Under the pieces are notes generated by a model. The model was given only the letters and a program-made list of their open reading frames with translations. It did no database searches and was not told where the DNA came from. The position numbers and the translations under genes were made by a program. A stretch of 64,000 nt of DNA from Pseudomonadales bacterium (lineage in GTDB: Bacteria; Pseudomonadota; Gammaproteobacteria; Pseudomonadales; DC-out160): positions 62,001 to 126,000 of the forward strand of contig JAHRWA010000039.1 in the NCBI GenBank assembly GCA_019090455.1, written 5' to 3'. Position 1 is the stretch's first letter. Each line of letters starts with the position of its first letter. Below, one piece after another: positions 14,072-37,900 of the stretch.

Positions 14072-14199
14072 GCTATTTCCCCAGGCAATATAATTAACGC
14101 ATCAACAGATAGGCTGATCATTGTGATTTTTCAAAGTAGAACATACCCAACCACTATTGGCCACATTTCAAATGTAGTAGAAACCAAAGTCCAGTACGC

Positions 14200-15183: not shown

Positions 15184-15196
15184 AATTAGAACCCCG

Positions 15197-15547
15197 CTAT
15201 TGGCTATCCGGTATTAACACAGACAAACCATCCAGTGCTTCTGTTATTTTAATCTGGCACGACAATCGACCCCGTGGATGAGGCTCCGCGGCAAATTCCA
15301 ACATAGTCAATTCCGATTGTTTCGCGGCTGGCAATTTATCAAACCACTCTTCATCCACGTGGACATGACAAGTTGCACAACTCAATGCGCCACCACACTC
15401 TGCTACGATACCCGCTAGAGCCTGACTCGTCGCTGACTTCATTAAACTAAGCCCTACCGTGGCATCGATTTCGTAGCACTCACCTTGATAGGATTTAAAC
15501 TTAACTTTTACGCACTTTTCTGACAATGAACGACTCCTAACAGGCAT
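15197..15547 (-). CDS. [2Fe-2S] ferredoxin, adrenodoxin/putidaredoxin type
   Basis: 116 residues from an ATG at 15547. The open frame extends to 15667, but that upstream part is inside the SDR gene and the degenerate intergenic repeat, so I prefer the internal start. Cluster ligands are C51, C57, C60 and C97 (CGGALSCATC, then LSC), the C-x5-C-x2-C-n-C spacing of adrenodoxin-like ferredoxins that feed P450s and some oxygenases. It is the only electron carrier in the island and could supply one or more of the three Rieske oxygenases; no reductase gene is present. The ribosome site is weak, so the start is uncertain. Confidence 0.85.
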   Translation of the reverse strand: MPVRSRSLSEKCVKVKFKSYQGECYEIDATVGLSLMKSATSQALAGIVAECGGALSCATCHVHVDEEWFDKLPAAKQSELTMLEFAAEPHPRGRLSCQIKITEALDGLSVLIPDSQ

Positions 15548-15644
15548 TGACTTAAAAGAAGTTTCTAACGTCATTAATCCAACATCTAGTCTTCCAATAT
15601 CTAGTAATGACAAACCTAGCAATGAATATTCTAGCCATAAAAAA

Positions 15645-16400
15645 TTACAACATCGTCGAACCACCATTCACACTGATGACTTGACCCGTTACAAAACTGG
15701 ATTCCGCACTGGCAAGATACGCTACCATTGAAGCCACTTCTTCCATTTCCGCCCCACGCCCCATTGGGATGACGGAGGTAAACTTGTCCATGATGGGCAG
15801 ACCTTTCTTAACTGCCGCTTGTACCATCGGGGTTGCTACCATACAAGGTGCAACGGTATTAATCGTAATTCCAGACTTTGCGAATTCGCGAGCCAAGCCC
15901 GTGGTGAGCCCATGCACGCCTCCTTTAGCCGCATTGTATCCTGCATGATTCCACAATCCATTGCGTACAGAATCGGCTCCGACGTTAATGATTCGTCCGT
16001 ATATCTGCTCAACCATTATTGGCAACGCTGCGTGGCAACACCAGAGAGTCGGCCATAGATTACGGTTCATTGTCTCTTTTAAGGATTCGGCATCGTGCTC
16101 TAAAAAAGGCCTAATGACACCACCACCCGCATTATTCACCAGAACATCAACAGAGCCAAAAGACTCATGAGTTTTCGCGACCATTTCTCTAACCAGCGAC
16201 TCCTCACTTAAATCACCGACTACCACCTGAACCCTGTCCAACTCCTTACTCAAATCCTGCTTCAACTCAAGAAGCCCCTCCTCATTTATATCCGCCAACA
16301 TGAGGTTCAATCCTTCGTCGTGAAATCGCTTCGCAATAACACGACCAATGGGGCTCGCAGCCCCAGTGATAATAGCGGTTTTTCCGTCTAATCCATTCAT
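15645..16400 (-). CDS. SDR-family dehydrogenase
   Basis: 251 residues: cofactor loop TGAASPIGR (12-20), VNNAGGG (88-94), and catalytic Y155/K159 in YNAAK, ending TGQVISVNGGSTML. The position of the usual catalytic Ser (13 before Tyr) is A142, with a Ser two residues later, so the classical Ser-Tyr-Lys set is incomplete as written. Similar enzymes oxidise hydroxyacyl or alicyclic alcohols in aromatic degradation. It lies 20 bases downstream of the alpha/beta hydrolase gene and upstream of the ferredoxin, in one minus-strand unit. Confidence 0.85.
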   Translation of the reverse strand: MNGLDGKTAIITGAASPIGRVIAKRFHDEGLNLMLADINEEGLLELKQDLSKELDRVQVVVGDLSEESLVREMVAKTHESFGSVDVLVNNAGGGVIRPFLEHDAESLKETMNRNLWPTLWCCHAALPIMVEQIYGRIINVGADSVRNGLWNHAGYNAAKGGVHGLTTGLAREFAKSGITINTVAPCMVATPMVQAAVKKGLPIMDKFTSVIPMGRGAEMEEVASMVAYLASAESSFVTGQVISVNGGSTML

Positions 16401-16420
16401 GATTTGAAGTCATTCATAAT

Positions 16421-17203
16421 TTATACACTTAGTTGGCGAATAAATCGATCTGCGGCCTGCAATACGGGTTCTGGCGTATCGAGATGGGGGTAATGAGTTC
16501 CTCCCTCGATTTCAAGATTTTCATGTGGACTAGTCAAACAATCTTGAATCAGATTTAAATTGTGTAAATAGCCATAATTGTCCGCCGTACCATATATGTC
16601 CAACACGGGGCATTTTATCTGGCGGACATTGGGAGAATAATCCAGTTTCACATCCCCTAAAGTAGAGGACGGAGTGGACCAGCCCCGAAATAGAATATCG
16701 GTGTTATCACCATGAAATGGAATTAACTTATCGCGTAACTTACCACTATGAAAAGCCTCAATCGCTTTATCTAAACCTTTATTCGTATCACCTGCGCTGA
16801 TAAGTTGGGGCGCAATTGCAATCGTGCCACAAACAGTATCTTGGTGAAGGCTGGAAGCAATGAGTGCTATACCGCCACCAAAACTATGACCAACCAAAAT
16901 CACTTTTCCAACACCAAAATGTTGAAAAATATCAACCAAAGGTTGATCCGCTTCCACTAAGCGTGCATCACCTTCACGCGGAAGTTCCAAAATATCCGAC
17001 TTCCCGTGCCCCCAACGTTCATCCACTATCCCTGCAAGACCGACCTTTTCACACAATTGTTGAGGAAACTCTCGCCACATTTTAATGCAATCCAAACCAC
17101 CATGAAGAAAAACTAATGTGGGTTTGGTTGCATCAATATCACTGATCAATTGAGTATTGATACGATGACCATTGGCCTGAATAAATTGTTCTTTGGTTTT
17201 CAT
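16421..17203 (-). CDS. Alpha/beta-hydrolase (possible meta-cleavage-product hydrolase)
   Basis: 260 residues of the alpha/beta-hydrolase fold: HGG oxyanion region at 34-36, nucleophile S107 in GHSFGG, acid D208 (YGTADNYG) and H237 (GGTHYPH) make a complete triad. In ring-cleavage clusters such enzymes often split the C-C bond of the meta-cleavage product (BphD, MhpC type), but esterases and lactonases share this architecture and I see no motif that decides. It follows dioxygenase pair 3 after a 150-base gap containing a tandem repeat and precedes an SDR. Confidence 0.8.
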   Translation of the reverse strand: MKTKEQFIQANGHRINTQLISDIDATKPTLVFLHGGLDCIKMWREFPQQLCEKVGLAGIVDERWGHGKSDILELPREGDARLVEADQPLVDIFQHFGVGKVILVGHSFGGGIALIASSLHQDTVCGTIAIAPQLISAGDTNKGLDKAIEAFHSGKLRDKLIPFHGDNTDILFRGWSTPSSTLGDVKLDYSPNVRQIKCPVLDIYGTADNYGYLHNLNLIQDCLTSPHENLEIEGGTHYPHLDTPEPVLQAADRFIRQLSV

Positions 17204-17227
17204 TACTCTTTAATCCTCTACTCTATT

Positions 17228-17283
17228 TGTTTACTACTGCCTGCTTACTGCCATCTGTTTACTACTGTCTGTTTACTACAATG
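17228..17283. repeat. Four-unit 14-bp tandem repeat, TGTTTACTACTGCC type
   Basis: Units at 17228-17241, 17242-17255, 17256-17269 and 17270-17283, each of the form TGYTTACTRC plus four variable bases, lie in the gap between the hydrolase start and dioxygenase beta 3. The units differ at one to five positions. No gene is encoded here. Confidence 0.75.
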
Positions 17284-17352
17284 AATATCGATCTTCTACA
17301 AAACTAGGCTAAAATTCAATAAAGGATTTAAGCTATCATTTTATAATATCAT

Positions 17353-17865
17353 TTAAATAATAATACTCACTTTCCCCTGTTCATTAATATTATCCACATC
17401 GAGAAAAGAGACTTTCTTTCGAATTTTTATATCGCCATCGATCAGACGGAGATAATAAATATGATGCCCTAGATAAGTTTCAGTGCTCCCACCTTTACTT
17501 CGGTATGTCACAAAATTTGACGTCACGCTAAAGCTCTCATCCGTGCCCTCTAGAATTCGAACATTAGTGACTAAATGTCGACACTTCGATTTCGGCCATT
17601 CCACATGCGCTGTCTTTTTTCCTAATCGTTTAACCCGTTCAGTTAATCGAAAATAGTCGTCCGCCACATAAAATAAAGTGGCTTTGGGTTCTACATCATC
17701 ACTGGATCCCGCTGGCGGTACCCAGTATTGGGCGTCTTCGGTAAATAAAGCGATCCAATCATCCAGTTGCCAAGCATCTAGCAAGGCTGCTTCATAATAC
17801 AAAAAATCTTCCAAATCAGAACGCGTAACGGAGAGTGTTGTCAGTTGCGGTTTTTGCACTTTCAT
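17353..17865 (-). CDS. Aromatic-ring-hydroxylating dioxygenase, beta subunit (pair 3)
   Basis: 170-residue Rieske-oxygenase small subunit (DLEDFLYYEAALLDAWQLDDW, split here as helix and WIALFTEDAQYWVPP strand, then CRHLVTNVRI). I chose the ATG at 17865 because it forms an ATGA overlap with the alpha-subunit stop and is preceded by GGAGAATC; the upstream extension lies inside the alpha gene. It pairs with alpha 3 as a coupled unit. The C-terminal end is short and basic. Confidence 0.9.
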   Translation of the reverse strand: MKVQKPQLTTLSVTRSDLEDFLYYEAALLDAWQLDDWIALFTEDAQYWVPPAGSSDDVEPKATLFYVADDYFRLTERVKRLGKKTAHVEWPKSKCRHLVTNVRILEGTDESFSVTSNFVTYRSKGGSTETYLGHHIYYLRLIDGDIKIRKKVSFLDVDNINEQGKVSIII

Positions 17866-19157
17866 CGTGATTCTCCTTGCATATACCGACTCCATTCACG
17901 CCAAAAGACTCGCATTTGCTCCTCGTCTGTATTGACCTGAACCTCCTCTCCCATACCCTTAGAAATATCATTCCATCCCGCGTATGTCATATTCTGATAA
18001 CCGCGCTGACACATTTTCAACGCTTCACAATCGTCAGGTGTTGCAAAACCTCCCGGCCCTAAGAACTCCAGGTAGTTATACAATCGCCGCTCTCGCATTA
18101 CTTCATTTTCATCTGAAGGTGCCAGCGCCCAAGCCTTCACGTGCTGCTTTCCGGCAGATTGCGGAAAGAACGTGCGCAACGTCACAGCCATAATATTGTT
18201 GATTACTAAATTAGGGAAAATCAATAAATTGAAATTGTGATAAGCGATTCGATCAGCGCGAGTTTTACCAAAACGCTCTTCCAAACCAGCACGAATCGCA
18301 GCGGTATCCGCTTCCCCTTGTTCACCCCAGGCAGAAACCGATTTCGCAACCGGTCGTCCCCATGGCGCACCGTATTCAATCACGCCATGTCCGTTGCCCA
18401 GATCCCGAGCCACATTGACCTTGGTACCTGCATCGCCAAACTGCCCCCCCGCAGCGATAACATAGTCAAAATAAGTCGCATGAGTAGGCATACCATGATA
18501 ACCGTCAAAACTATTCTCAACTAACAACTTCCAGTTCGCTTCAAACCCGTATTCTTGAGTACCACCGACTATTTCCATACTTTCTGCAGATTGATCTATG
18601 GTGAGGTCAATGTATTCAATAGCACCACCCAAATACGTTTTAAGATCCACCGAGTCAGCATCGTAATTAATAAAATACAGCCCCCGATATTCTTCTAATC
18701 GAGCAACTGCGACCAAATCATGAATACCGTCAATATTCTCCGTATGATATCGCTCTTCTTCGGGCCGGCTTATCAACTTTCCACTTAAATCAAAAGACCA
18801 AGCGTGATACATACAGCGAAACATTTTTCCGTTGCCTTGCTTCTCACGACAGACCAGCGCCCCTCGATGAGGGCAGCTATTAAAAAAAGCACGTGCTACG
18901 CCATCACGTCCTCTTGCGAAAATCAACTCTCGACCGCCCACATCACGGGATAAGAAGTCCCCTTTATCCTTTATCTCACTAACGTGACCGATATAGAGCC
19001 AGCATTTATCAAAAATCATTGTCTCTTCGCGTGCCAGGATTGTTTCATCCACAAAAACACGACGATTCACTTGAAAGATGGATTCGCTGACATTCTCCTT
19101 GATATAGAATTCCGCTATATCCTTCGTTCCCTCAGCCTCAATGGGTATCCTACTCAT
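17862..19157 (-). CDS. Rieske aromatic-ring-hydroxylating dioxygenase, alpha subunit (pair 3)
   Basis: 431-residue large subunit with Rieske ligands C95, H97, C115 and H118 (CPH, 17 residues, CMYH) and an iron site of D218, H221 and H226 (DGYHGMPTH). The C-terminal part keeps the FPNLVINN element that follows the core strand in this family. It resembles alpha 1 more than alpha 2 in its iron-site spacing and sequence (ENS.DGYH in both). It follows the LigB-type dioxygenase by 26 bases, so hydroxylation and ring opening may be coupled in one transcript. The substrate is unknown. Confidence 0.92.
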   Translation of the reverse strand: MSRIPIEAEGTKDIAEFYIKENVSESIFQVNRRVFVDETILAREETMIFDKCWLYIGHVSEIKDKGDFLSRDVGGRELIFARGRDGVARAFFNSCPHRGALVCREKQGNGKMFRCMYHAWSFDLSGKLISRPEEERYHTENIDGIHDLVAVARLEEYRGLYFINYDADSVDLKTYLGGAIEYIDLTIDQSAESMEIVGGTQEYGFEANWKLLVENSFDGYHGMPTHATYFDYVIAAGGQFGDAGTKVNVARDLGNGHGVIEYGAPWGRPVAKSVSAWGEQGEADTAAIRAGLEERFGKTRADRIAYHNFNLLIFPNLVINNIMAVTLRTFFPQSAGKQHVKAWALAPSDENEVMRERRLYNYLEFLGPGGFATPDDCEALKMCQRGYQNMTYAGWNDISKGMGEEVQVNTDEEQMRVFWREWSRYMQGESR

Positions 19158-19183
19158 TCGATCCTCCCTTATGCTTTCGTTTT

Positions 19184-20248
19184 TTAAGCTCGAAATAAAC
19201 TAAAACACTTCTGCGAATTAAAAATCCAGGTCTCGAGATAATCAATCACTTCCACCTTGTGATCCGGCACCACACCCGACAAACATATCCAGTTCTTAAA
19301 TTCCTGACAGCCTGCATCATCAATCGCGTCATTTTCTAAGTTCGCCCAATTTCGATGATTGCCTTGCTCCAACTCTTCAAATCGATTGCGATCAAATTGA
19401 CGATCGGGATAAAGCCAATTATTTTTTTCAGTGAGAAATGCATGGGACCAACCTGACGAAGCCATTACGACAAATCGCTCTGGACGATTCTCAAGAACTT
19501 CTCGCAAAGTTTCACCCAATTGAAAACACGTTCTCGGCGTCGGGCCCGCTGGACCGGGGCTATCAAGATAGGGATCTTTTTCTGACTCCGGTCGTTTATC
19601 GAAAAGTTGTGCCGCACCACCGCGAGTGGAGATCACACCTTTGCCGTAACAATTCACTGAGATGGGTATAATGGGATATGGCCAACCTTTTTGTTCCCAA
19701 TCCAGAAAAACCATGGCGTTGGAAAAAGCATGCGATAAAGTTGGATAATTTAAATATCGGTAAGAATAAGCAATGGGAAAATGATGTGAAATAATCTGAT
19801 CTGCTAGCGTCCTAGCAAGCTGGCCTGCACCCGGTACAGTGAAGGTATGTTCTGGCTCAACTCCCCAAATATTTTTGTTACTGTTAACAAATGTGAATGG
19901 CTTTGCCGGGAATGCATCCATGCAATACATATTAAAAGGAGGAATAACATCTTCTTTGAAGTTCTCGTACTGATCATCTCCAAAGATGATGACGGCATCA
20001 GGCGAAAACTCATCGATAGTTTGTCGTACCGTCGCCAGTGCTTTTTTGTGCCTCTCTTGATGCAAGTGCGCTTGCGCACTCATATCTTGCCACTCCTGTT
20101 GCATTTCCTTCGGCCAGTTTGAAGGTTGCTTCATCTTTTCTGGCACTAAGCGGCTAGTCATAATCCCGCGTAGTAAATTTGCATAAGTATCCGGATACCC
20201 TAATAAGGGTGGATAATGTGTGATGCCAACACCGAGTATCTCTGCCAT
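19184..20248 (-). CDS. Class III (LigB-type) extradiol ring-cleavage dioxygenase
   Basis: 354 residues from the ATG at 20248, which has an ideal AGGAGG four bases upstream; the longer open frame to 20266 runs through this ribosome site and is rejected. GITHYPPLLG near the N-terminus supplies a likely Fe ligand (H11), and ERHKKAL, LSHAF and SSGWSHAF supply further His residues expected in the LigB superfamily; IIFGDDQYE is also typical. The family cleaves protocatechuate-, gallate- or catechol-type rings and is unrelated to the BphC-type enzyme at 12266. No LigA-like small subunit is present. It heads a unit with dioxygenase pair 3. Confidence 0.87.
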   Translation of the reverse strand: MAEILGVGITHYPPLLGYPDTYANLLRGIMTSRLVPEKMKQPSNWPKEMQQEWQDMSAQAHLHQERHKKALATVRQTIDEFSPDAVIIFGDDQYENFKEDVIPPFNMYCMDAFPAKPFTFVNSNKNIWGVEPEHTFTVPGAGQLARTLADQIISHHFPIAYSYRYLNYPTLSHAFSNAMVFLDWEQKGWPYPIIPISVNCYGKGVISTRGGAAQLFDKRPESEKDPYLDSPGPAGPTPRTCFQLGETLREVLENRPERFVVMASSGWSHAFLTEKNNWLYPDRQFDRNRFEELEQGNHRNWANLENDAIDDAGCQEFKNWICLSGVVPDHKVEVIDYLETWIFNSQKCFSLFRA

Positions 20249-20357
20249 CCTTCCTCCTGAATTCACGCTTCCTTAAAATCGGAATCAGTAGTCTGCCAGC
20301 TAAGGGTGTTGTAGGTAAAGGCCCGTTTTCAGGTTCCTATTGGGCTTATAGCTGACA

Positions 20358-21608
20358 TCACCTCTCAGGTTTCAACCACCAAACATAGGCGGTCAACGGC
20401 ACAAATAAAAGGGTGGTAAACCAGTAAGGAAGCGTTTCGCTATATTGATACAACGCCGTTCCGATTAATGGCCCGAGTATAAAACCCAATGCAGGTGATG
20501 CCGCAATAACCCCTGCTACCGCACCTTGTTCATTGGCTGTCACAGCGAGGGTGGCCGCTGACGTAAAACCTGGCATGGTCAATCCCATACCAAAACCCAC
20601 AACCCCCATACAACTCACTAGCCAAAAATACGCCTCGGCATTGGCAAGAATAAAAAAGCCAATTCCCATGATCGGAATCCCGATGCGTATCAAGGTCATT
20701 GCTGCAAAGTTAAAACGTTGCACAATAATACCCTGCGCTACTAAAGAGGACACCGCCGAGATAATCATCGCCACCCCCACCATCTGAGCCGTATGCTGCC
20801 CATCAAGTCCCATGCGATCCTGGTAGAAAAACCCCAAAGTCTGTTGCGCGACGGCAAAGGCGGTAAACATAGAAACACCAATAAATAGAAATGACGTATA
20901 TCGACGATCAAAGTACCCCTTAACCGCGATGACTATTTGCTGTGAGATGCCCAGACTGGGACTGCTGTTATCTTGTTTATGCGGTGACTCAGGTAAAAAC
21001 TTCCAGACCAGAAGAGTAGCAACAAGCGTAGTTGCCGCCGCCACGTATAGCGGCAACAACAAGCTAAAAATAGCGAGACCACCCCCCACAGCAGGGCCCG
21101 CGATAGTCCCCACACTTTGAGCCGCCCCCACTTTCCCCATTGCTGCCGTTCGGAATCTAAGTTGCGTAATATCCACTAAATAGGCGGTAGACGCGGGAGG
21201 AGACGCGGCCATCACCGAAGACTGCAACATTCGACTCACCGCCAAACAAAAAAACAGTAGCCAACCCGTGAGCCAGCCATTAAGGCCAAACCAAAATGTC
21301 GATGCAAATAAAAGCGTTCCCACCGTGTAGCCCGCTAAGCCAATAATAATAACTCGCTTACGTCCCCAGCGCTCACTTTGGTTACCCCAAATCACACTGG
21401 CTATGGCAAAGACGATAGAAGAGGCGGAGATGATGGCGCCAATCTGCATCTCCATTAATCCCACTTCGCGACCCAGAGAAGGCAAAATAGCAAACACCAA
21501 AGTTTGCCCCATGCCCACAGAAATAATACTTAAGAGAATTAAAGGCTGCGCCCACCGCAAAGATTCATCTTGCGGAGAAGTAGAGTTGGAATCAGAAATA
21601 AGACGCAC
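20358..21608 (-). CDS. Major facilitator superfamily transporter (DHA1/TetA-like)
   Basis: 416 residues with about twelve hydrophobic helices. The loop between helices 2 and 3 has the MFS motif GNQSERWGRKRVI, and helix 5 has a GPAVGGG antiporter-type motif, as in drug/proton antiporters of the DHA1 family. In this context it may import an aromatic substrate or export a toxic intermediate; the direction cannot be read from sequence, though DHA1 members are usually exporters. It lies between the PdxA-like gene and the LigB-type dioxygenase on the same strand. Confidence 0.87.
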   Translation of the reverse strand: MRLISDSNSTSPQDESLRWAQPLILLSIISVGMGQTLVFAILPSLGREVGLMEMQIGAIISASSIVFAIASVIWGNQSERWGRKRVIIIGLAGYTVGTLLFASTFWFGLNGWLTGWLLFFCLAVSRMLQSSVMAASPPASTAYLVDITQLRFRTAAMGKVGAAQSVGTIAGPAVGGGLAIFSLLLPLYVAAATTLVATLLVWKFLPESPHKQDNSSPSLGISQQIVIAVKGYFDRRYTSFLFIGVSMFTAFAVAQQTLGFFYQDRMGLDGQHTAQMVGVAMIISAVSSLVAQGIIVQRFNFAAMTLIRIGIPIMGIGFFILANAEAYFWLVSCMGVVGFGMGLTMPGFTSAATLAVTANEQGAVAGVIAASPALGFILGPLIGTALYQYSETLPYWFTTLLFVPLTAYVWWLKPER

Positions 21609-21678
21609 CTATAACCTGTTAATAAAGAGGTCGGAATTTTACGCCTTATACCCACCATTAGCGAGCCAACAAACGGCT

Positions 21679-22656
21679 CTACTCCTTTAAAAAGCCGCCT
21701 CCGGAAGCCAAGCTCGCGCCTTGTAAAATAGCGGCCAAGATCATCTCATGGCTAGCAACGCCCTTCCCTGCAATATCAAAAGCGGTGCCGTGACCGACGC
21801 TCATAAACAAATAAGGAGCACCCAGAAAGAGGGCGCAATTACCGACAAAGCCCCAGGTTTTAATCGCGATATGACCTTGGTCGTGACACATGGCCACAAC
21901 CACATCAAAACGATCCTCTATACAATGACGAAAAACGGTATCAGGCGGAATCGGACCAGAGATGTCCAGCCCCTCAGACTGAGCGATTTCAATCGCAGGA
22001 CCAATGGCCATTTTCTCCTGCGGTCCGTGAGCATGGGGGTTTAATCCCGCAACACCAATGCGCGGATTGTGAATTCCCCAAGCGGTTAAACACTCATGGG
22101 TTTTGCGGATGGCGCCCAACACCAGTTCCGTGGACATGCGTTTGCACACATCTTCAATTAACACGTGATCAAAAACATGGACCACTCTCAAAGGACCAGA
22201 GATAAGCGTGAGAAAACGCGAGGACTCATCTGTACTGACAACCTTATCGACGGACTTGCCTTTGATCAATGACTTGACGTTTACCGGGGCCATCACACTA
22301 GCAGCCACATCGCCTGAGGTTGCCAATTCAGCCGCTTCTTCAAGCCACGCTCCGTTAGCACGACCGCTTTCCGCTTTAGCGATACCCAGTTCTATATCTG
22401 CTGGATCGAGCGCACCACTGTCCAAGACATCGACATAGCCAGGTTCATCTCCGGCCGTTTTCGCATCGCTCACTGAACGTAGTTTTAAATCTACCCTTGC
22501 AATGGCAATACCCTGCTCCATCAATTCAAGACTACCTACGATAAGCGGGCGACAAGTTTGATGAGGCTGACCGGTTGCTAACGCCTTGGCCACCACCTCT
22601 GGACCGATACCTCCGGGATCTCCAGGAGTAATGGCGATTATGGGTTTGTCTGACAT
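21679..22656 (-). CDS. PdxA-family dehydrogenase, possibly a TphB-like dihydrodiol dehydrogenase
   Basis: 325 residues with the PdxA signatures ITPGDPGGIGPE (9-20), VMAPVNVKSLIKG, NPHAHG and AMCHDQGHI, which provide the three metal-binding His residues. PdxA itself oxidises and decarboxylates 4-phosphohydroxythreonine for vitamin B6, but PdxA paralogues such as TphB act as decarboxylating dehydrogenases on cis-dihydrodiols of carboxylated aromatics. Being first in an aromatic operon and lacking the usual pdxA neighbours (surA, ksgA), the catabolic role is favoured by inference. An AGGAGCTTCG-type site lies before the ATG. Confidence 0.85.
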   Translation of the reverse strand: MSDKPIIAITPGDPGGIGPEVVAKALATGQPHQTCRPLIVGSLELMEQGIAIARVDLKLRSVSDAKTAGDEPGYVDVLDSGALDPADIELGIAKAESGRANGAWLEEAAELATSGDVAASVMAPVNVKSLIKGKSVDKVVSTDESSRFLTLISGPLRVVHVFDHVLIEDVCKRMSTELVLGAIRKTHECLTAWGIHNPRIGVAGLNPHAHGPQEKMAIGPAIEIAQSEGLDISGPIPPDTVFRHCIEDRFDVVVAMCHDQGHIAIKTWGFVGNCALFLGAPYLFMSVGHGTAFDIAGKGVASHEMILAAILQGASLASGGGFLKE

Positions 22657-28325: not shown

Positions 28326-29825
28326 ATGACCACTGAAACAACAATAGAGCAACCACTCTTTAAAAAGGTACTCATTGCAAATCGAGGTGAAATTGCCCTG
28401 CGCATACTTCGCTGTTTGCAAAGTTTGGAAATACCCTCTGTCGCTATTTACCACTACAGTGAAGAGCGTTCCCCTCTACTAACCCAAGCCGACGAAGCGA
28501 TTGAAATCATCGGAGACAGTCCTAGTGCTGCTTACTTGGATGTCGCACAGATTATTGAAATCTGTCAGAGGCTGGGTGTCGATGCCGTTCACCCCGGCTA
28601 CGGCTTTTTATCTGAAAACGCTAAATTCGCCGTCGCCTTAGCGGAAGCGGGTATTCAATTTATTGGGCCTACACACCAATCCATAGACCTAATGGGCGAT
28701 AAGATAAATTCCAGAAACTTTGTCGCCGAACGCGGTTTTCCTGTGCCTCCCTCAGTCACGATGGACGCTGATTCTCCTGAGTTCATTGATGCGATCAAGG
28801 AAATGACCTTTCCATTAGTGGTGAAAGCCTCAGCAGGCGGCGGTGGAAAAGGGATGAGTATCGTTAATTCGATTGATGAGTTAGAAGCGACGCTTCGTGT
28901 TGCTGCATCAGAAGCTGAAAAGTACTTTGGCGATAAGCGCGTTTATGTCGAACGGTATTTTGAAAGTGCTCGGCATATAGAAGTGCAAGTACTGGGAGAC
29001 GGTAAAACCGTTATCCATCTGGGCGAACGAGAATGTTCCATTCAACGTCGCTTTCAAAAAGTTATAGAAGAAGCGCCTTCACCAGCTCTGGACCAAACAA
29101 AACGCAAGGAACTCTGTGAAGCGGCTGTAGGAATTGCCCAGGCTGCCAACTACACCAGTGTTGGAACCGTGGAGTTTCTTTATACCCCGCAAGGCGAATT
29201 CTTTTTTCTAGAAATGAATACCCGGATTCAAGTCGAACACCCCGTCACTGAAATGGTGTACGGCGTTGATCTAATAGCAGCGCAAATCAAAGTGGCTGCG
29301 GGTCTTCCTCTGGATCTCGCTCAAGCAGATATTGTGATGAACGGACATGCAATTGAATGTCGCCTTTGCGCTGAGGATGCTTTTAATAATTTCATCCCCG
29401 AAACGGGTAAGGTCCTTTTTCTCAAAGAACCTGCAGGCGAAGGGATTCGCTTTGATAGCAGCCTTTACTCAGGACAAGACATCACTACCTCCTTCGATCC
29501 CATGTTGGCAAAATTAGTAGTACATGCCGCTACAAGAGAAGAGGCTATCGCAGGAGCTATCCAAGGCTTGAAAGATCTGGTGCTACTCGGCGTCAACAGC
29601 AATTGCGAATTCCTGATAAAAGTACTGGAACATCCTGCCTTTTTATCGGGCGACATCGACACTGGCTTTATCAACACTTACAGCGAAGACCTTACCGCGA
29701 ATGGTCCCGAGAAAGATCAGCTACAAGCCGTTCTTTCTGCAACATACCTATCCGATCGCGAGACCACATTGTTGAATGATGCCACTCCACAACCCTACAC
29801 CGCCATTGGTCACTGGAGAAATTAA
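28326..29825 (+). CDS. Acyl-CoA carboxylase, biotin carboxylase subunit
   Basis: 499 residues with the biotin-carboxylase core: FKKVLIANRGEIA at the start, HPGYGFLSEN (89-98), the ATP-grasp Gly loop KASAGGGGKGM (167-177), and EMNTRIQVEHP near 298-308. It carries out ATP- and bicarbonate-dependent carboxylation of biotin. About 50 residues follow the core and end at HWRN, exactly where the fused paralogue (35855) reads HWRLTA and continues into its BT and BCCP domains. The next ORF starts in the same reading frame right after the TAA, so one in-frame stop separates the two. Confidence 0.93.
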   Translation: MTTETTIEQPLFKKVLIANRGEIALRILRCLQSLEIPSVAIYHYSEERSPLLTQADEAIEIIGDSPSAAYLDVAQIIEICQRLGVDAVHPGYGFLSENAKFAVALAEAGIQFIGPTHQSIDLMGDKINSRNFVAERGFPVPPSVTMDADSPEFIDAIKEMTFPLVVKASAGGGGKGMSIVNSIDELEATLRVAASEAEKYFGDKRVYVERYFESARHIEVQVLGDGKTVIHLGERECSIQRRFQKVIEEAPSPALDQTKRKELCEAAVGIAQAANYTSVGTVEFLYTPQGEFFFLEMNTRIQVEHPVTEMVYGVDLIAAQIKVAAGLPLDLAQADIVMNGHAIECRLCAEDAFNNFIPETGKVLFLKEPAGEGIRFDSSLYSGQDITTSFDPMLAKLVVHAATREEAIAGAIQGLKDLVLLGVNSNCEFLIKVLEHPAFLSGDIDTGFINTYSEDLTANGPEKDQLQAVLSATYLSDRETTLLNDATPQPYTAIGHWRN

Positions 29826-30338
29826 ATGCAACCTAAATACTTACTGAATGACAACTCCCATACAGTGACGCCCGTACGTCGAAACGACACCGTGACGCTA
29901 TCAATAGACGACCAACTCGTAACCGTAGGCTACCGTCGTTTGAATAGCCACGAGGCTGAATTGACGCTAAAAGGGAAAGTGCGCACGGTGTATGTCGCGC
30001 AAGACGAATATAAACTTTATCTACACCTTGATGGCAAAGTCTGGCAATTGGATCGACTCAACGAGTTTAGCGAAGGTAGTGCAGGAGGCGCTTCTAGCGG
30101 CTCAATCAATGCACCCATGCCGGGAGTCGTAATTGAGATTTACAGTGAAGTGGGTCAAACCGTGACTCAAGGTGACACGGTAATGCTAATCGAGAGCATG
30201 AAATTACAAACTGAGATCAAGGCCTCGATATCAGGCGTTATTCAATCAATAGGGGTTGAGCCAGGCTCAAACTTTAACAAAGGCATTCTCTTAGCAGAAA
30301 TAGAAGCCGAAGAAACAAATACTGAGAGTGAGGAGTAA
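29826..30338 (+). CDS. Acyl-CoA carboxylase, BT-like plus biotin carboxyl carrier (BCCP) segment
   Basis: 170 residues: a beta-rich segment equivalent to the BT/linker part of fused carboxylase alpha subunits (about 1-80), a Gly/Ser/Ala hinge (83-94), and a biotinyl domain (95-165) with the biotin Lys K126 in ESMKLQ. It would carry carboxybiotin between the upstream biotin carboxylase and the downstream carboxyltransferase. Its ATG follows the previous TAA without any gap and in the same frame; GGAGAA at 29815-29820 gives a proper ribosome site, so independent initiation is plausible. Confidence 0.92.
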   Translation: MQPKYLLNDNSHTVTPVRRNDTVTLSIDDQLVTVGYRRLNSHEAELTLKGKVRTVYVAQDEYKLYLHLDGKVWQLDRLNEFSEGSAGGASSGSINAPMPGVVIEIYSEVGQTVTQGDTVMLIESMKLQTEIKASISGVIQSIGVEPGSNFNKGILLAEIEAEETNTESEE

Positions 30339-30343
30339 AGACC

Positions 30344-31951
30344 ATGCGACGTATTCAGTCTCAAATCAATACCAATTCAGCTGATTTCAAACAATTTAAA
30401 GAACACAATTTAAAAATAATCGCTGAGTTTAAGCAAAAGCAACATGATGCCCGCTATACCCGCCCCGACCGAGATCTTCAGCGCTTAAAAAAGCAAAACA
30501 AAATGATGCCTCGCGATCGGCTAGAATTATTATTAGATCCCGGCACACCCTTTTTAGAATTTTCATCTTTAGCCGCCAACATGGCCTATGACGGTAAAGT
30601 TCCTTCCGCTAGCTGTATCACAGGGATTGGAATTGTGGGTGGTAGAGAGGTGGTGATCAACGCCAGTGACAGCTCTGTCAAAGGCGGAGCTTGGTACCCT
30701 TTATCGGTCAAGAAAATTGTACGTGCATTGGATATTGCAATCGAAAACCGACTACCCGTAATCCATATGTGTGACAGCGCGGGCGGCTTTCTACCGATGC
30801 AATCGGATCTATTCGGCGATAAGTACATGGCCGGAAGAATGTTTCGCAATCAAACGCAATTATCCAAATTAGGTTGCAAGCAACTCTCCTTAGTTTTCGG
30901 TCACTGTACCGCCGGTGGCGCTTACATACCGGGTTTATCCGATTATTCCGTAATAGTAGAAGGCACCGGTGCCGTATTTTTAGGAGGCCCACCTCTCGTT
31001 AAAGCCGCTACCGGGGAAGACGTTAGCGTTGATGACCTAGGCGGAGCCAGAATGCACACCACCATCTCCGGCGTTTGCGATTACTACGCTAACAATGAAC
31101 CCGAAGCCATCGCTATCGGCCGTGAAATAGTCATGCAGTGGGAACAGCCTAAGAAATTTGATATTCAACGGGAGACACCGGAAGACCCCTATTACGACCC
31201 TACCGATCTCTACGGCATCGTTCCTGATGATATTAAGAAGCAATTCGATGTTCGCGAAGTGATTGCTCGTATCGTCGATGGCAGCCGTTTTTCTGAATAT
31301 CAACCCAACTATGGTGAAACCATGGTCTGTGGCTTCGCCAACATCTGGGGCTACAAGGTGGGAATTCTCGGCAACAATGGGGTGCTGTTTAACGACAGTT
31401 CACTCAAAGCCGCTCACTTCATGCAACTGTGTAATCAGAACCATGTGCCCTTAGTTTTCCTTCAAAACATTACCGGCTACATGATTGGTAAAGAATACGA
31501 ACAACGCGGCATTACCAAAGACGGCGCAAAAATGCTGATGGTACAAGCTTGCTCCGAAGTGCCCAAATTCACCATTATGACAAACGGTTCATTCGGCGCT
31601 GGCAACTACGGCATGTGTGGTCGCTCCTTCGATGCTCGCACACTCTTTAGCTGGCCCCAAAGTCAGATATCAGTAATGGGGTCTGATCAAGCCGCCAATA
31701 CATTGGTCACCATTAAAGTCGCGCAGCTTAAGCGCCAAGGCATGGACCCTGACGCACAACAGCTGGAGCAGGTCCGAGCTGAAGTATTAAGTAACTATGA
31801 AAACCAAACTAGCGCCTACTACACGAGTTCAGAGATTTGGGATGATGGTATTATTGATCCTGTGGATACCCGCAATGCGCTGGGGATATCATTAACGGCA
31901 TCCTTAAATGCGCCCTTTGGTGATCCGCGTTATGGGGTATTGAGATTGTAA
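30344..31951 (+). CDS. Acyl-CoA carboxylase, carboxyltransferase subunit (MCC-beta / geranyl-CoA type)
   Basis: 535 residues of the biotin-dependent carboxyltransferase family: N-terminal crotonase-like half with LLDPGTPFLEFSSLAA (63-78) and CTAGGAYIPGLSD (188-200), C-terminal half with QNITGYMIGKEYE and GSFGAGNYGMCGR. It aligns without gaps over its first 200 residues with the paralogue at 38856 but is clearly diverged, so the two carboxylases probably act on different acyl-CoAs (3-methylcrotonyl-, geranyl- or another branched enoyl-CoA). It starts 5 bases after the BCCP gene. Confidence 0.9.
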   Translation: MRRIQSQINTNSADFKQFKEHNLKIIAEFKQKQHDARYTRPDRDLQRLKKQNKMMPRDRLELLLDPGTPFLEFSSLAANMAYDGKVPSASCITGIGIVGGREVVINASDSSVKGGAWYPLSVKKIVRALDIAIENRLPVIHMCDSAGGFLPMQSDLFGDKYMAGRMFRNQTQLSKLGCKQLSLVFGHCTAGGAYIPGLSDYSVIVEGTGAVFLGGPPLVKAATGEDVSVDDLGGARMHTTISGVCDYYANNEPEAIAIGREIVMQWEQPKKFDIQRETPEDPYYDPTDLYGIVPDDIKKQFDVREVIARIVDGSRFSEYQPNYGETMVCGFANIWGYKVGILGNNGVLFNDSSLKAAHFMQLCNQNHVPLVFLQNITGYMIGKEYEQRGITKDGAKMLMVQACSEVPKFTIMTNGSFGAGNYGMCGRSFDARTLFSWPQSQISVMGSDQAANTLVTIKVAQLKRQGMDPDAQQLEQVRAEVLSNYENQTSAYYTSSEIWDDGIIDPVDTRNALGISLTASLNAPFGDPRYGVLRL

Positions 31952-32123: not shown

Positions 32124-33299
32124 ATGTCACTAGCCCATCAATTTTCACTCACTACTGAGCAGCAAAGTCTTCTCGATCATGCTGATAAATTTGCGAGAGA
32201 AAAACTCTATCCCTTAGCAGAGAAAATGGATAACGAAGAATCCTGGCCGAAGGAAATCATGCCTATGCTAGGCGACTTGGGTTTTCTGGGTGTTACCGTA
32301 CCCGAGCAATACGGCGGTAGCGGTATGGGTATGCTCGAAGCTGGACTTATCGGACAAGCCTTTGCTCGCTGGAATAACGCTGTGTCCTTAAGCTGGTTGG
32401 CTCACGACAATCTTTGCGTCAACAACATTTACAACAACGGCAGCGAGTTTATTCGCGACAAGTATCTTCCTAAGCTTTGCAGTGGTGAATGGACCGGTTG
32501 CTTAGGTCTGACTGAACCTGGCGCGGGTTCTGACGCACTCGGCTCCATGAGCACTAAAGCCGTTCGCGATGGCGATCACTACGTCATTAATGGTGCCAAG
32601 ATTTTTATCACTAACGGCCCTGTCGCTGACGTCTGCTTGCTCTATGCAAAAACGCAGCAGGGAGCCGGTTCTAAGGGAATTACCGCCTTTGTTGTTGAAA
32701 CTAACACACCGGGATTTAAGGTGGCGCAAAAGCTGATAAAGATGGGATTTCGCGGGAGTCAGACTGCTGAATTGGTATTTGAAGACATGCGTATACCGGT
32801 AGAGAATATCGTCGGTAAAGAACACGAAGGCCATCGCGTCGTGATGAGTGGACTGGATTTTGAACGTGCTATGGCAGCACCTCTTAGCGTTGGTATCGCT
32901 GAAAGAGCATTAGAATTGGCCGTAGAATATTCGAAAACACGTAAGCAGTTTGGCAAGACCATTGGCGAATTCCAAATGATACAAGCGCGCTTAGCGGACA
33001 TGTACGTTTGGGTAGAAACCATGAAGACGCTAAACTGGAAAGTACTCGCTGAAGTCTCTGGGCTAGATGAAACACAAGTGGGTCGTGGCGAAATTCACGC
33101 ACGCGCCGCTGCCTCCGTTATGTACTGTGCCGATATGTGTAACAAAGTTCTCGACAATTCCGTTCAAGTCCATGGTGGTAGTGGATACATTTGGGAAACG
33201 GAAATCAACCGACTCTTCAGAACCACAAAATTATTAGAAATCGGTGCGGGCACTACCGAAGTCAGAAAAATGATTATTGCCGGCGAACTGCTTAAATAA
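32124..33299 (+). CDS. Acyl-CoA dehydrogenase, isovaleryl-CoA type (tandem copy 1)
   Basis: 391 residues. The C-terminal EIGAGTTEVRKM replaces the usual catalytic Glu region by Gly-Ala-Gly, exactly as in isovaleryl-CoA dehydrogenases, where the base moves to an earlier helix; the expected Glu is E247 in GLDFERA. FAD-domain elements LGLTEPGAGSDA (127-138) and GSKGITAFVVET are present. It would oxidise a branched short-chain acyl-CoA with electrons passed to ETF. It is followed 22 bases later by a close paralogue that shares most of its sequence, so a recent tandem duplication is clear. Confidence 0.9.
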   Translation: MSLAHQFSLTTEQQSLLDHADKFAREKLYPLAEKMDNEESWPKEIMPMLGDLGFLGVTVPEQYGGSGMGMLEAGLIGQAFARWNNAVSLSWLAHDNLCVNNIYNNGSEFIRDKYLPKLCSGEWTGCLGLTEPGAGSDALGSMSTKAVRDGDHYVINGAKIFITNGPVADVCLLYAKTQQGAGSKGITAFVVETNTPGFKVAQKLIKMGFRGSQTAELVFEDMRIPVENIVGKEHEGHRVVMSGLDFERAMAAPLSVGIAERALELAVEYSKTRKQFGKTIGEFQMIQARLADMYVWVETMKTLNWKVLAEVSGLDETQVGRGEIHARAAASVMYCADMCNKVLDNSVQVHGGSGYIWETEINRLFRTTKLLEIGAGTTEVRKMIIAGELLK

Positions 33300-33321
33300 A
33301 AATTTACAAGAGGAATAAACC

Positions 33322-34494
33322 ATGGCAACGACCCAGTTCTCTTTAACACCAGAACAGCAAAACCTATTCGATCACGCCGATCGTTTTGCTCGTGAGCAAA
33401 TGTACCCCTTGTCGGCCAAAATGGATAACGAAGAATGGTGGCCCGCCGATTTTATGAAAAAATTTGGTGAGCTTGGATTCTTAGGCGTTACCATTCCCGA
33501 AGAGTTTGGTGGCTGCGGTATGAGTTTGTTAGATGCAGGCTTAATTTTACAAGCCTTTTCTCGCTGGAATCACGCTCTCGCTTTAAGCTGGATTACCCAC
33601 GAGAATTTGTGCACCAACAACATCTACAACAACGGCAATCAGTTTATTCGGGAAAAATATTTACCGAAACTCTGTAACGGCGAATGGACCGGATGTTTAG
33701 GATTAACCGAACCCGGTGCCGGATCAGATGCACTAGGCTCCATGAGCACCAAAGCGGTACTGGATGGCGATCATTACGTTATCAATGGCGGCAAGATGTT
33801 TATTACCAATGGCCCCGTCGCGGACATCTGTCTTCTCTACGCCAAAACGGAGCCAGATCGAGGCTCCAAAGGTATCACTGCATTTGTAGTAGAAACCAAC
33901 ACGCCTGGATTCAAGGTTGCGCAAAAGCTCATTAAAATGGGTTTTCGTGGTAGCCAGACAGGCGAATTTGTTTTTGAAGACATGCGAGTTCCGGTAGAAA
34001 ATGTTCTTGGAAAGGTGAACGAAGGTCATCGCGTCGTGATGAGTGGACTGGATTTCGAACGCGCAGTTATCGCACCTCTGGGTGTGGGCGTTGCAGAACG
34101 AACCCTACAACTCTCAATAGAATACGCCAAAACAAGAAAGCAATTCGGCAAGACCATCGGTGAGTTTCAGATGATACAAGCGCGCCTAGCGGATATGTAC
34201 GTCTGGGTAGAAACCATGAAAACATTCTGTTGGCAGGTACTAGCGGATGTATCCGAAGTGGATGAAACCCAAGCCGGTCGCGGTGAGATACATGCTCGCA
34301 CAGCGGCATCCATGATGTACTGCGCCGACATGTGTAATAAGGTATTAGACAATGGGGTCCAAATACACGGTGGCGGTGGCTATATTTGGGAATCTGAAAT
34401 CAATCGATTATTCCGTTCCATAAAGGTGATGGAAATTGGTGCCGGTACAACGGAAGTCAGGAAGATGATTATTGCTGGCGAGTTATTGAAGTAA
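33322..34494 (+). CDS. Acyl-CoA dehydrogenase, isovaleryl-CoA type (tandem copy 2)
   Basis: 390 residues, a near-duplicate of the preceding gene: identical blocks include LTEPGAGSDALGSMSTKAV, AQKLIKMGFRGSQT and KTRKQFGKTIGEFQMIQARL (shortened here). It keeps the IVD-type catalytic Glu (E246 in LDFERAV) and the EIGAGTTEVRKM end. Differences are concentrated around residues 60-95 and 255-275, near the acyl pocket in this family, so the copies may have split chain-length or branching preference. AGAGGAAT precedes the ATG. A strong terminator follows. Confidence 0.9.
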   Translation: MATTQFSLTPEQQNLFDHADRFAREQMYPLSAKMDNEEWWPADFMKKFGELGFLGVTIPEEFGGCGMSLLDAGLILQAFSRWNHALALSWITHENLCTNNIYNNGNQFIREKYLPKLCNGEWTGCLGLTEPGAGSDALGSMSTKAVLDGDHYVINGGKMFITNGPVADICLLYAKTEPDRGSKGITAFVVETNTPGFKVAQKLIKMGFRGSQTGEFVFEDMRVPVENVLGKVNEGHRVVMSGLDFERAVIAPLGVGVAERTLQLSIEYAKTRKQFGKTIGEFQMIQARLADMYVWVETMKTFCWQVLADVSEVDETQAGRGEIHARTAASMMYCADMCNKVLDNGVQIHGGGGYIWESEINRLFRSIKVMEIGAGTTEVRKMIIAGELLK

Positions 34495-35792: not shown

Positions 35793-35900
35793 GGTTCTAT
35801 TTTTACTGATGGTTCTATTTCAACTATTTGTTCTATTTCAACTATTGGTTTTGTTTATACTGATGGTTCTATTTCTACCAATGGTTCAATTTCTACGAGA
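35793..35900. repeat. Six-unit 18-bp tandem repeat spanning the 3' end of the carboxylase alpha gene
   Basis: Units of 18 bases, consensus GGTTCTATTTCTACTGAT, at 35793, 35811, 35829, 35847, 35865 and 35883. The minus-strand stop codon (35857-35855) falls inside the fourth unit, so units 5-6 encode the doubled protein end LVEIEP-LVEIEP while units 1-3 lie outside the gene. Divergence between units is 2-6 bases. Confidence 0.9.
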
Positions 35901-37900
35901 AGCGTGCCACTTTCTACATTGTCGCCCGCTTCACAAAATACTTTAGACACGGTGCCTGAGCACGGTGCCACTACACTATTGATCAGTTTCATTGACTCGA
36001 TCGCCAGTGCATTATCGCCCTGCTGAACAATATCGCCTTCACTGATCAATACATCGGTAATAAGACCAGGCATCTGCGCGACGATGACATTGGAGCTATC
36101 GGCATCGGCAGAAGCTTCCTTCAGCAAGTCTTCTTCCAAACTAATAAATGGGTAGCTTCTATTGAGTTTTGACGAACTGAGATACACCTTTGCATCATCA
36201 ATAACGATGTCCAACACTCCACGACTACCGCTCACTTCCACCTCTGCTTGAGATGAGCCCTCTCCCCTTTTGAGGTTCAGTTGTATAGAAAACTCAGAGG
36301 TCTCTTGTTCCTTCATTAACGTGACACGGTACCGGCCCTTTCCTCCCACTAATTTGATCGTTAGCGTGGAGTCGTCTTCTTGTAAATAAAGCTGAGTCAC
36401 AGCGGGAACACCGGCGTCAGCAGTCAATCGCCAATGGCTTAAACTCTGCCAAGGCGTGCCACTGAAATCACCTGTGCTTTTTTCTTCCTGTTCGGTAGCC
36501 AACACAACTGCTGCAATGGCGGCATGCACGTCTTCCCCCCAAGGCTGCCAGCCATCGGGAAAGGCGTTTTCGATATATTGTGTGGTCAGTTCCTGATGAA
36601 ATGCCGGGCGCGACAATAAGCTCATTAGAAACTCGCGATTGGTATTAACACCTGCAATAGCGAAGTCTCCTAATCCTTGAACTAACTTCTGTGCCGCAAC
36701 ACCTCTTGCATCACCGCAAGCGATAACTTTGGCAACCATCGAGTCGTAAAAGGGAGTAATGCTGGAACCTTGTGCCACACCCGAGTCCACTCTCAAGCCT
36801 GCTACCTGTGGTTCTCGATAAAGATTGATACTGCCGATTTCAGGTAAGTAGTTATTGCTAGGGTCTTCGGCATTAACCCGTGCCTCGATCGCATGACCCT
36901 CTATTGTTACATCCGATTGTTCGAAAGGTAAGGACTCGCCTTGCGCAATCTGAATTTGCAAAACCACCAAATCAAGACCCGTCACCATCTCAGTGGTTGG
37001 GTGCTCCACTTGTAGACGCGTATTCATCTCAAGAAAATAATAGTCTTGAGTATCCGCATCGACAATAAATTCAACAGTACCTGCACCTTGGTAATTTAAG
37101 TGCTGCGCGAGCTTAACTGCACAATCAAAAAGACCCTGTCGTGTTTCCTGACTTAAGTGGCCAGCAGGTGCCTCTTCAATTACTTTTTGATAATTACGTT
37201 GTATAGAACATTCACGATCAAAAAGATGACACACGTTGCCCTGACTATCGCCCACTACCTGCACTTCGATATGTCGAGAACGCACAATGTATTTTTCTAG
37301 CAAGACTTTATCATCGCCAAAGGCATTCAATGCTTCTTGTTTCGCTTGAGTAAGGGCGGCTTCAAAGCCCTCCTTATCCATGACAATACGCATCCCCTTA
37401 CCACCGCCGCCAGCGCTGGCTTTAATCAGTAAAGGAAATCCCACGTTATCCGCTTCAGCTAACAGCTCGGGAACCGCTTGTGAGTCACCGTTATATCCGG
37501 GAACAGTTGCAATACCCAAGTCTATGGCGATGCTTTTGGCATTTATTTTCGAACCCATCTGAACGATAGATTCCAAAGAAGGACCGACAAAAGTAATATC
37601 GTTTTCTTCGCATCGTCGGATTAGCTCGGTACTTTCTGATAAAAAGCCATAACCAGGATGAATGGCATCAACCTTGATATTCAACGCCGCATTAACAATA
37701 ACTTCCGCATTCAAGTAGCTAGCAGTCGCCGCAGAAGCACCGATATGAACAGCTCGATCGGCTAAACGTACATGCTTTGCTTCACGATCGGCGTCGGAAA
37801 AAACAGCGACAGATTCGATTCCCAGAAGCCGGCAGCTACGCATAATGCGACAGGCTATCTCACCTCGGTTCGCGATCAGCAATCGTTTGATGGATTTCAT
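35855..37900 (-). CDS. liuD: Acyl-CoA carboxylase alpha subunit (biotin carboxylase-BCCP fusion, MCC-alpha type)
   Basis: 681 residues: biotin carboxylase core (KRLLIANRGEIA at 5-16; HPGYGFLSES; KASAGGGGKGM; EMNTRLQVEHP), a BT-like middle region (about 490-590) and a C-terminal biotinyl domain with ESMKL, biotin Lys near residue 637. Together with the carboxyltransferase at 38856 and the LiuC-like hydratase it fits methylcrotonyl-CoA carboxylase of leucine degradation. The protein ends in a duplicated VEIEP segment produced by an 18-bp tandem repeat that runs through the stop codon. It overlaps the hydratase stop by 4 bases. Confidence 0.9.
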   Translation of the reverse strand: MKSIKRLLIANRGEIACRIMRSCRLLGIESVAVFSDADREAKHVRLADRAVHIGASAATASYLNAEVIVNAALNIKVDAIHPGYGFLSESTELIRRCEENDITFVGPSLESIVQMGSKINAKSIAIDLGIATVPGYNGDSQAVPELLAEADNVGFPLLIKASAGGGGKGMRIVMDKEGFEAALTQAKQEALNAFGDDKVLLEKYIVRSRHIEVQVVGDSQGNVCHLFDRECSIQRNYQKVIEEAPAGHLSQETRQGLFDCAVKLAQHLNYQGAGTVEFIVDADTQDYYFLEMNTRLQVEHPTTEMVTGLDLVVLQIQIAQGESLPFEQSDVTIEGHAIEARVNAEDPSNNYLPEIGSINLYREPQVAGLRVDSGVAQGSSITPFYDSMVAKVIACGDARGVAAQKLVQGLGDFAIAGVNTNREFLMSLLSRPAFHQELTTQYIENAFPDGWQPWGEDVHAAIAAVVLATEQEEKSTGDFSGTPWQSLSHWRLTADAGVPAVTQLYLQEDDSTLTIKLVGGKGRYRVTLMKEQETSEFSIQLNLKRGEGSSQAEVEVSGSRGVLDIVIDDAKVYLSSSKLNRSYPFISLEEDLLKEASADADSSNVIVAQMPGLITDVLISEGDIVQQGDNALAIESMKLINSVVAPCSGTVSKVFCEAGDNVESGTLLVEIEPLVEIEPSV

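What the first reader, a model, noticed from the sequence alone, without database searches (positions are those of the whole stretch)
28326..30338. Acyl-CoA carboxylase alpha subunit split by a single in-frame stop
The biotin carboxylase ORF ends with TAA at 29823-29825 and the BT/BCCP ORF starts with ATG at the very next base in the same frame. The join (HWRN-stop-MQPK) aligns with an uninterrupted HWRLTA in the fused paralogue at 35855, and the summed lengths (499 + 170) approach its 681 residues. GGAGAA before the ATG suggests real re-initiation. It is either a very clean gene fission, a nonsense change tolerated through re-initiation, a readthrough site making two forms, or a sequencing error.
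Basis: seen in the sequence. Interest (0 to 1): 0.6.

Follow-up and report, generated by a model that had tools for sequence, protein, structure and literature searches.

The report
Carboxylase subunit encoded by two genes
What looked like one biotin-enzyme gene broken by a stop codon is an old, conserved pair of separate neighbouring genes, cut at the same protein position in many bacteria and probably translated one right after the other.

Summary
The biotin carboxylase (BC) ORF ends ...HWRN-TAA at 29825, and the biotin-carrier (BCCP) ORF starts with ATG at 29826. The same cut, at W-R-N, occurs in 27 further distinct loci from Gamma-, Beta- and Alphaproteobacteria. Their spacers run from -4 to 163 nt, in all three relative frames and with all three stop codons. 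Readthrough, a fresh nonsense mutation and a sequencing error are therefore excluded as general explanations. Annotated plasmid records already list the pair as two genes.

The BC halves of the split genes form one well-supported clade. The cut divides the BT domain: helix and hook stay on the BC chain, the eight-stranded barrel is on the BCCP chain. When the BCCP start lies within about 5 nt of the stop, the codon after the hook Trp is AGA/AGG/AGT (20/22), giving a Shine-Dalgarno GGAG. When the start is farther away it is always CGN (6/6). This supports termination-reinitiation coupling. The partner carboxyltransferase has Ala/Ser/Gly where MCC has Phe191, which suggests a substrate larger than 3-methylcrotonyl-CoA. 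A conserved variant of a known enzyme kind, of moderate interest.

The parts
28326..29825 (+). Biotin carboxylase (BC) subunit gene, 499 aa; Pfam Biotin_carb_N / CPSase_L_D2 / Biotin_carb_C, aa 12-450
   Evidence: orthologues
29712..29783 (+). Helix corresponding to alpha-V of the BT domain, at the C-terminal end of the BC chain (aa 463-486)
   Evidence: AlphaFold2 model of the read-through polypeptide, DSSP helices 463-476 and 478-486; role inferred from the BT description in PMC4673880
29814..29822 (+). Codons TGG AGA AAT = W497-R498-N499, last residues of the BC chain; the Trp corresponds to the conserved hook Trp of GCC/MCC (by alignment to the paralogue's HWR, inferred)
   Evidence: PMC4673880
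29815..29818 (+). GGAG, putative Shine-Dalgarno inside the W-R codons, 7 nt before the BCCP ATG
   Evidence: codon pattern across 28 split loci
29823..29825 (+). TAA, authentic stop of the BC gene
29826..30338 (+). BT-barrel/biotin-carrier (BCCP) subunit gene, 170 aa
29835..30059 (+). Eight-stranded barrel part of the BT domain (BCCP aa about 4-78)
   Evidence: DSSP strands 504-578 in the read-through model; Pfam BT_MCC_alpha aa 10-78, below its cut-off
30105..30302 (+). Biotinyl domain (PF00364, aa 94-159)
30201..30203 (+). Lys126 codon of ESMK, predicted biotinylation site; invariant in ten orthologues
30344..31951 (+). Carboxyltransferase (beta) subunit gene, 535 aa, MCC/GCC lineage; 5 nt after the BCCP stop
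30830..30832 (+). Ala163 codon, at the position of MCC Phe191 / GCC Gly162
   Evidence: PMC4673880
26982..28142 (+). Acyl-CoA dehydrogenase gene just upstream, probable same pathway
32124..34494 (+). Two tandem acyl-CoA dehydrogenase-like genes just downstream (32124-33299, 33322-34494)
   Evidence: judged from the translation; no family search was run on these two

Best explanation
This is a three-gene acyl-CoA carboxylase operon of the MCC/GCC lineage (BC - BCCP - CT). Its alpha subunit is made as two chains from two genuine genes. Shown from sequence: two genes under purifying selection, with the cut conserved in position and not in frame or spacing. Inferred: ribosomes finishing BC at W-R-N-stop are re-engaged through the GGAG embedded in the Trp-Arg codons and restart at once on BCCP, giving matched amounts of both chains. 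The BCCP chain's barrel closes non-covalently around the helix at the end of the BC chain. The hook, ending in the conserved Trp, packs on the carboxyltransferase, so the parts rebuild the BT domain and a normal alpha-beta assembly in which a swinging biotin carrier serves both active sites. The likely substrate is a branched or unsaturated acyl-CoA larger than 3-methylcrotonyl-CoA (weakest step).
For: All 11 order-level and 6 class-level genomes with an orthologue at E<=1e-140 (window included in each) have a stop before the BCCP part; the L068 orthologue, with a 649-aa frame, also stops at WRN. Junctions: the BC chain ends W-R-N in 24 of 28 loci (WSN in 1, WRNA in 2, WRNG in 1), spacers -4 to 163 nt, stops TAA/TAG/TGA, three relative frames. 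Annotated as two genes in Roseovarius, Rhizobium, Sphingopyxis and Sinorhizobium plasmid records. BC tree: 29 split sequences in one clade at 100/96. Codon after the hook Trp: AGA/AGG/AGT in 20 of 22 loci with the BCCP start within 5 nt, CGN in 6 of 6 with farther starts, against 8.5% AGA/AGG among Arg codons in these genes, and CGN in 6 of 6 fused homologues with a Trp-Arg there (L066 start corrected). In L010 Arg became Ser (AGT) yet GGAG is kept. Read-through model, pLDDT 81: helix 463-486 before the cut, eight strands 504-578 after it, low confidence at 495-500; best PDB matches are MCC and PCC alpha chains. Termination-reinitiation needs overlaps or very short gaps and such pairs often encode complex subunits (PMC10666635); SD removal lowered reinitiation in 4 of 5 E. 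coli pairs (PMC6728339). Partner CT has Ala/Ser/Gly at the Phe191 position in every split system examined, Phe in the fused-MCC partners examined.
Against: No expression, biotinylation or complex data. Two close-spaced loci (L057, L072) use CGG, and L056 has a 163-nt spacer, so tight coupling is not universal. Loci are phylogenetically related, so the codon association is weaker than its raw counts suggest. The model is a single covalent read-through chain standing in for two chains, with only 16 alignment rows. Ala at the Phe191 position indicates pocket size, not the actual substrate.
Confidence: 0.88

Rival explanations
1. Stop-codon readthrough at TAA makes a minor fused alpha subunit in addition to the two chains.
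For: In the window and its congener the two ORFs are in the same frame with nothing between them, so readthrough would give an intact fused chain; that chain models well.
Against: TAA is generally the least leaky stop (own knowledge). In most orthologues BCCP is in another frame or overlaps BC. No unusual RNA structure around the stop (z = -0.79).
Confidence: 0.03
2. Recent nonsense mutation or sequencing/assembly error in an otherwise fused gene.
For: Only the in-frame, zero-gap geometry.
Against: The same TAA|ATG in an independent congener assembly at saturated dS; the same cut residue in Alpha-, Beta- and Gammaproteobacteria.
Confidence: 0.01
3. The split is ancestral to this lineage rather than a fission: BC and BCCP were never fused here. 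(A rival about history only; the present-day two-gene reading is unchanged.)
For: Three-chain acyl-CoA carboxylases are inferred as ancestral and separate BC/BCCP occur widely (PMC3199775). The AccC outgroup is itself unfused.
Against: In the tree the split clade lies among fused MCC/PCC/GCC-type sequences, though its sister placement has only 94/78 support. The two chains share one BT domain, easier to explain by cutting than by independent origin.
Confidence: 0.25
4. The two genes are expressed independently; the GGAG in the W-R codons is incidental.
For: L056, L068 and L012 have spacers of 163, 41 and 25 nt; coupling is reported to fade by about 20 nt (PMC10666635).
Against: The codon-spacing association: AGN 20/22 when close, CGN 6/6 when far, and CGN in 6 of 6 fused homologues.
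Confidence: 0.12

Closest known systems
3-Methylcrotonyl-CoA carboxylase (MCC; P. aeruginosa 3u9s, L. pneumophila 9tps/9tqc, human 8j4z)
   Same: CT subunit closest by sequence to MCC beta chains; BC + BT + biotinyl parts; predicted fold of the joined chain best matches MCC and PCC alpha.
   Different: Alpha is two polypeptides; Phe191 of MCC is replaced by Ala.
Geranyl-CoA carboxylase (GCC, AtuC/AtuF; 5ikl)
   Same: Small residue at the Phe191/Gly162 position; BT with a long helix and an eight-stranded barrel (PMC4673880); the Roseovarius homologue operon has an AtuA-family gene.
   Different: GCC alpha is one chain; the window CT is closer to MCC than to GCC by score, and it does not show the three-residue gap relative to MCC that is described for GCC.
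Three-chain acyl-CoA carboxylases (archaeal ACC/PCC; E. coli AccB/AccC)
   Same: BC and BCCP on separate chains.
   Different: CT and BC belong to the MCC/GCC lineage here; whether archaeal enzymes are cut at the same BT position was not tested. E. coli also has a divided CT.
Overlapping or abutting gene pairs with termination-reinitiation (PMC6728339, PMC10666635)
   Same: -4, -1, 0 and +1 nt spacings, internal SD in the upstream gene, products of one complex.
   Different: Coupling has not been measured here.

Membership tests
MCC/GCC-lineage biotin-dependent acyl-CoA carboxylase | Biotin carboxylase domains | tested here: met
   PF00289, PF02786, PF02785 well above cut-off
MCC/GCC-lineage biotin-dependent acyl-CoA carboxylase | Biotinyl domain with the MK lysine motif | tested here: met
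   PF00364 above cut-off; ESMK, invariant Lys126
MCC/GCC-lineage biotin-dependent acyl-CoA carboxylase | CT subunit of the MCC/GCC type | tested here: met
   Full-length match to L. pneumophila MCC beta, 597 bits, against 260 bits or less for PCC-type CT
MCC/GCC-lineage biotin-dependent acyl-CoA carboxylase | BT domain (helix, hook, beta-barrel) between BC and BCCP | tested here: met
   Predicted helix plus eight strands, but spread over two chains; Pfam BT match below its cut-off
MCC proper | Alpha subunit is one polypeptide | tested here: not met
   Two genes in the window and in all close orthologues found
MCC proper | Phe at CT position 191 (human numbering) | tested here: not met
   Ala163 in the window; Ala/Ser/Gly in all split systems examined
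GCC proper | Gly at the equivalent CT position (162) | tested here: not met
   Ala in the window; Gly only in some relatives (L053, L054, L070, L073)
GCC proper | Activity on geranyl-CoA | not testable with these tools
   Needs an enzyme assay
Translationally coupled gene pair | Overlap or very short spacing plus SD in the upstream gene | tested here: met
   0 nt; GGAG 7 nt before the ATG
Translationally coupled gene pair | Downstream translation depends on upstream translation | not testable with these tools
   Needs reporter constructs

The most novel reading that the evidence does not exclude
A widespread, undescribed subclass of MCC/GCC-lineage carboxylases in Proteobacteria in which the holoenzyme is built from three chains, with the BT domain reassembled from a helix-hook on one chain and a barrel-biotin carrier on another; the last codons of the first gene are kept as AGA/AGG because they are also the ribosome-binding site of the second; and all members act on acyl-CoAs larger than 3-methylcrotonyl-CoA.
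Probability: 0.45. Interest if true: 0.5.

Novelty: new variant of a known kind. Interest (0 to 1): 0.36.

Why it matters
Such pairs can be misread as pseudogenes or sequencing errors; here the comparison shows a stable design. If the model holds, it is a naturally split domain within a large enzyme complex, useful for asking how closely the biotin carboxylase and the biotin carrier must be tied together. It also gives a compact case where the last residues of one protein and the ribosome-binding site of the next share the same bases, testable by synonymous codon changes. The shared small residue in the CT pocket points to an unassigned group of branched-chain or terpenoid acyl-CoA carboxylases.

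Tried and rejected
Readthrough, sequencing error and recent nonsense change: rejected from orthologue junctions. RNA structure at the stop: nothing unusual (z -0.79). Promoter/terminator scan over the operon: no more hits than shuffles, none informative. An early junction script used the wrong frame and was redone. In one search the L066 start was mis-picked; one search shows GTG at +1 nt, and the counts given use that correction. The family searches TIGR00514, TIGR00531 and TIGR00513 found no match over cut-off to canonical accC, accB or accA in the window's genome, so I considered whether this pair replaces the housekeeping enzyme; a separate 1660-aa CT-BC protein makes that unnecessary. Literature searches in the held library found no description of this split MCC/GCC-type alpha; most subscription papers are not held, so that absence is weak evidence.

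Full report
Observation. The BC ORF runs 28326-29825 and ends ...GHWRN-TAA; the next base starts ATG of a 170-aa ORF in the same frame. Pfam gives the three biotin carboxylase domains on the first ORF and a biotinyl domain, plus a sub-threshold BT match, on the second. A carboxyltransferase gene follows 5 nt after the second ORF. The description is therefore correct. The fused gene at 35855-37900 is a paralogue, about 42% identical over BC, with about 19 extra residues between HWR and the barrel, so the split pair is not that gene interrupted by one stop.

Orthologues. A genome-collection search with the second ORF found eight gammaproteobacterial loci, seven of them at 41-72% identity over most of the query and one partial, and weaker matches in other phyla. 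Searches of 392 order-level and 369 class-level genomes with the BC ORF at E<=1e-140 found 11 and 6 genomes, the window's own included; all have an open frame of 493-564 aa, too short to include BCCP. The phylum search added two. One (L068, open frame 649 aa because of an upstream extension) also ends at WRN before a separate 163-aa BCCP ORF; the other (L069) is fused. Plasmid records of Roseovarius, Rhizobium, Sinorhizobium and Sphingopyxis already annotate two genes followed by a carboxyltransferase gene. Cupriavidus necator pBB1 has the same layout without annotation.

Junction. Across 28 loci the BC chain ends W-R-N (24), W-S-N (1), W-R-N-A (2) or W-R-N-G (1). The spacer from BC stop to BCCP start runs from -4 to +163 nt, in all three relative frames, with TAA, TAG and TGA. 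What is conserved is the residue at which the first chain ends, not the stop codon, the frame or the spacing. Readthrough could produce a fused chain only in the few loci that happen to be in frame. The zero-gap geometry is shared by the window and its congener, which differ by 15% and 28% at protein level with saturated synonymous change, so an error or fresh mutation is ruled out. Both halves are under purifying selection.

Tree. In a tree of 57 BC sequences (IQ-TREE, LG+C20), 29 split BCs form one clade at 100/96; only a Planctomycetota split (L019), with a different C-terminus, falls elsewhere. The split clade sits among fused sequences, but its sister relation has only 94/78 support, so fission is the likelier history and is not proven. 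The published scheme derives bacterial fused forms from an older three-chain enzyme (PMC3199775).

Where the cut falls. The GCC structure paper describes BT as a long helix, a hook, then an eight-stranded barrel, with a conserved Trp at the start of the hook's last strand buried in the carboxyltransferase interface (PMC4673880). The BC chain here carries a predicted helix at 463-486 and ends two residues after a Trp that aligns with the paralogue's HWR. The BCCP chain begins the barrel: eight predicted strands at read-through positions 504-578. The joined polypeptide, read with TAA=Q only for modelling, gave pLDDT 81 and pTM 0.79 with low confidence at the join, and its best PDB matches are MCC and PCC alpha chains. 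That the chains reassemble non-covalently is inference.

Coupling. In the window GGAG inside TGG-AGA lies 7 nt before the BCCP ATG. In 22 loci with a start within 5 nt of the stop, the codon after the Trp is AGA/AGG (19) or AGT (1, as Ser), and CGG in two. In six loci with spacers of 8 nt or more it is CGN in all six. AGA/AGG make up only 8.5% of Arg codons in these genes (L066 corrected). Among fused homologues with a Trp-Arg there, 6 of 6 use CGN. Fisher's test before the L066 correction gave p = 0.0005 for all loci and 0.004 for a thinned set; with the correction, by hand, about 7e-5 and 7e-4. The loci are related, so these are indications, not probabilities of chance. Published work shows strong dependence of reinitiation on short distance and frequent dependence on SD.

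Function. The CT is of the MCC/GCC type. At the residue that makes MCC small-pocketed (Phe191) the window has Ala163, and all split systems examined have Ala, Ser or Gly, whereas fused-MCC partners examined have Phe. The neighbours encode an upstream acyl-CoA dehydrogenase and two downstream acyl-CoA dehydrogenase-like proteins, and one relative carries an AtuA-family gene. A substrate larger than 3-methylcrotonyl-CoA is suggested; which one is unknown.

Verdict. Two genuine genes, an ancient conserved split of the alpha subunit, very probably translationally coupled. The split as such is already visible in public annotation; the cut through BT, the dual-use codons and the pocket residue are the parts that I did not find described.

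Noticed in passing
G000:C61:60300-66500 (L114), outside the window: The window's genome and its congener show no accA match over the family cut-off and no accB or accC match over theirs. The window's genome has one 1660-aa protein with an AccA-like CT near the N-terminus, BC near the C-terminus and a BCCP-like match after BC: a probable single-chain acetyl-CoA carboxylase, comparable to the multidomain ACC described in Saccharopolyspora (PMC6491548). accD was not searched, and the congener is only 87% complete.
   Followed up: partly
G000:C35:392000-398000 (L115), outside the window: A further carboxylase pair: a 977-aa protein with divergent BC domains and a C-terminal biotinyl domain, next to a 571-aa carboxyltransferase.
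   Followed up: partly
window 13331-22656 (-): Rieske dioxygenase alpha subunit, LigB-type ring-opening dioxygenase, amidohydrolase, PdxA-like protein and an MFS transporter: looks like an aromatic-compound degradation cluster beside the carboxylase genes.
   Followed up: partly
window 32124-33299 and 33322-34494 (+): Two tandem, clearly similar acyl-CoA dehydrogenase-like genes, probably a duplication.
   Followed up: no
L056 (G127), between BC stop and BCCP start: A 163-nt spacer separates the two genes, by far the longest among the loci in the main split clade; it may be an inserted element.
   Followed up: no
L087 (G538:C2:2165376-2166476): The canonical AccC reading in this otherwise good genome contains two TGA codons inside the match; error or real not checked.
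   Followed up: no
L019 (Planctomycetota), BC end near 3567: A BC/BCCP pair with a TGATG overlap but a different, longer BC C-terminus, outside the main split clade: possibly an independent split.
   Followed up: partly
plasmid hits H18-H20 (Pseudosulfitobacter): BC matches broken into two or three pieces in plasmids otherwise much like ones with intact matches, probably frameshift errors in those records.
   Followed up: no
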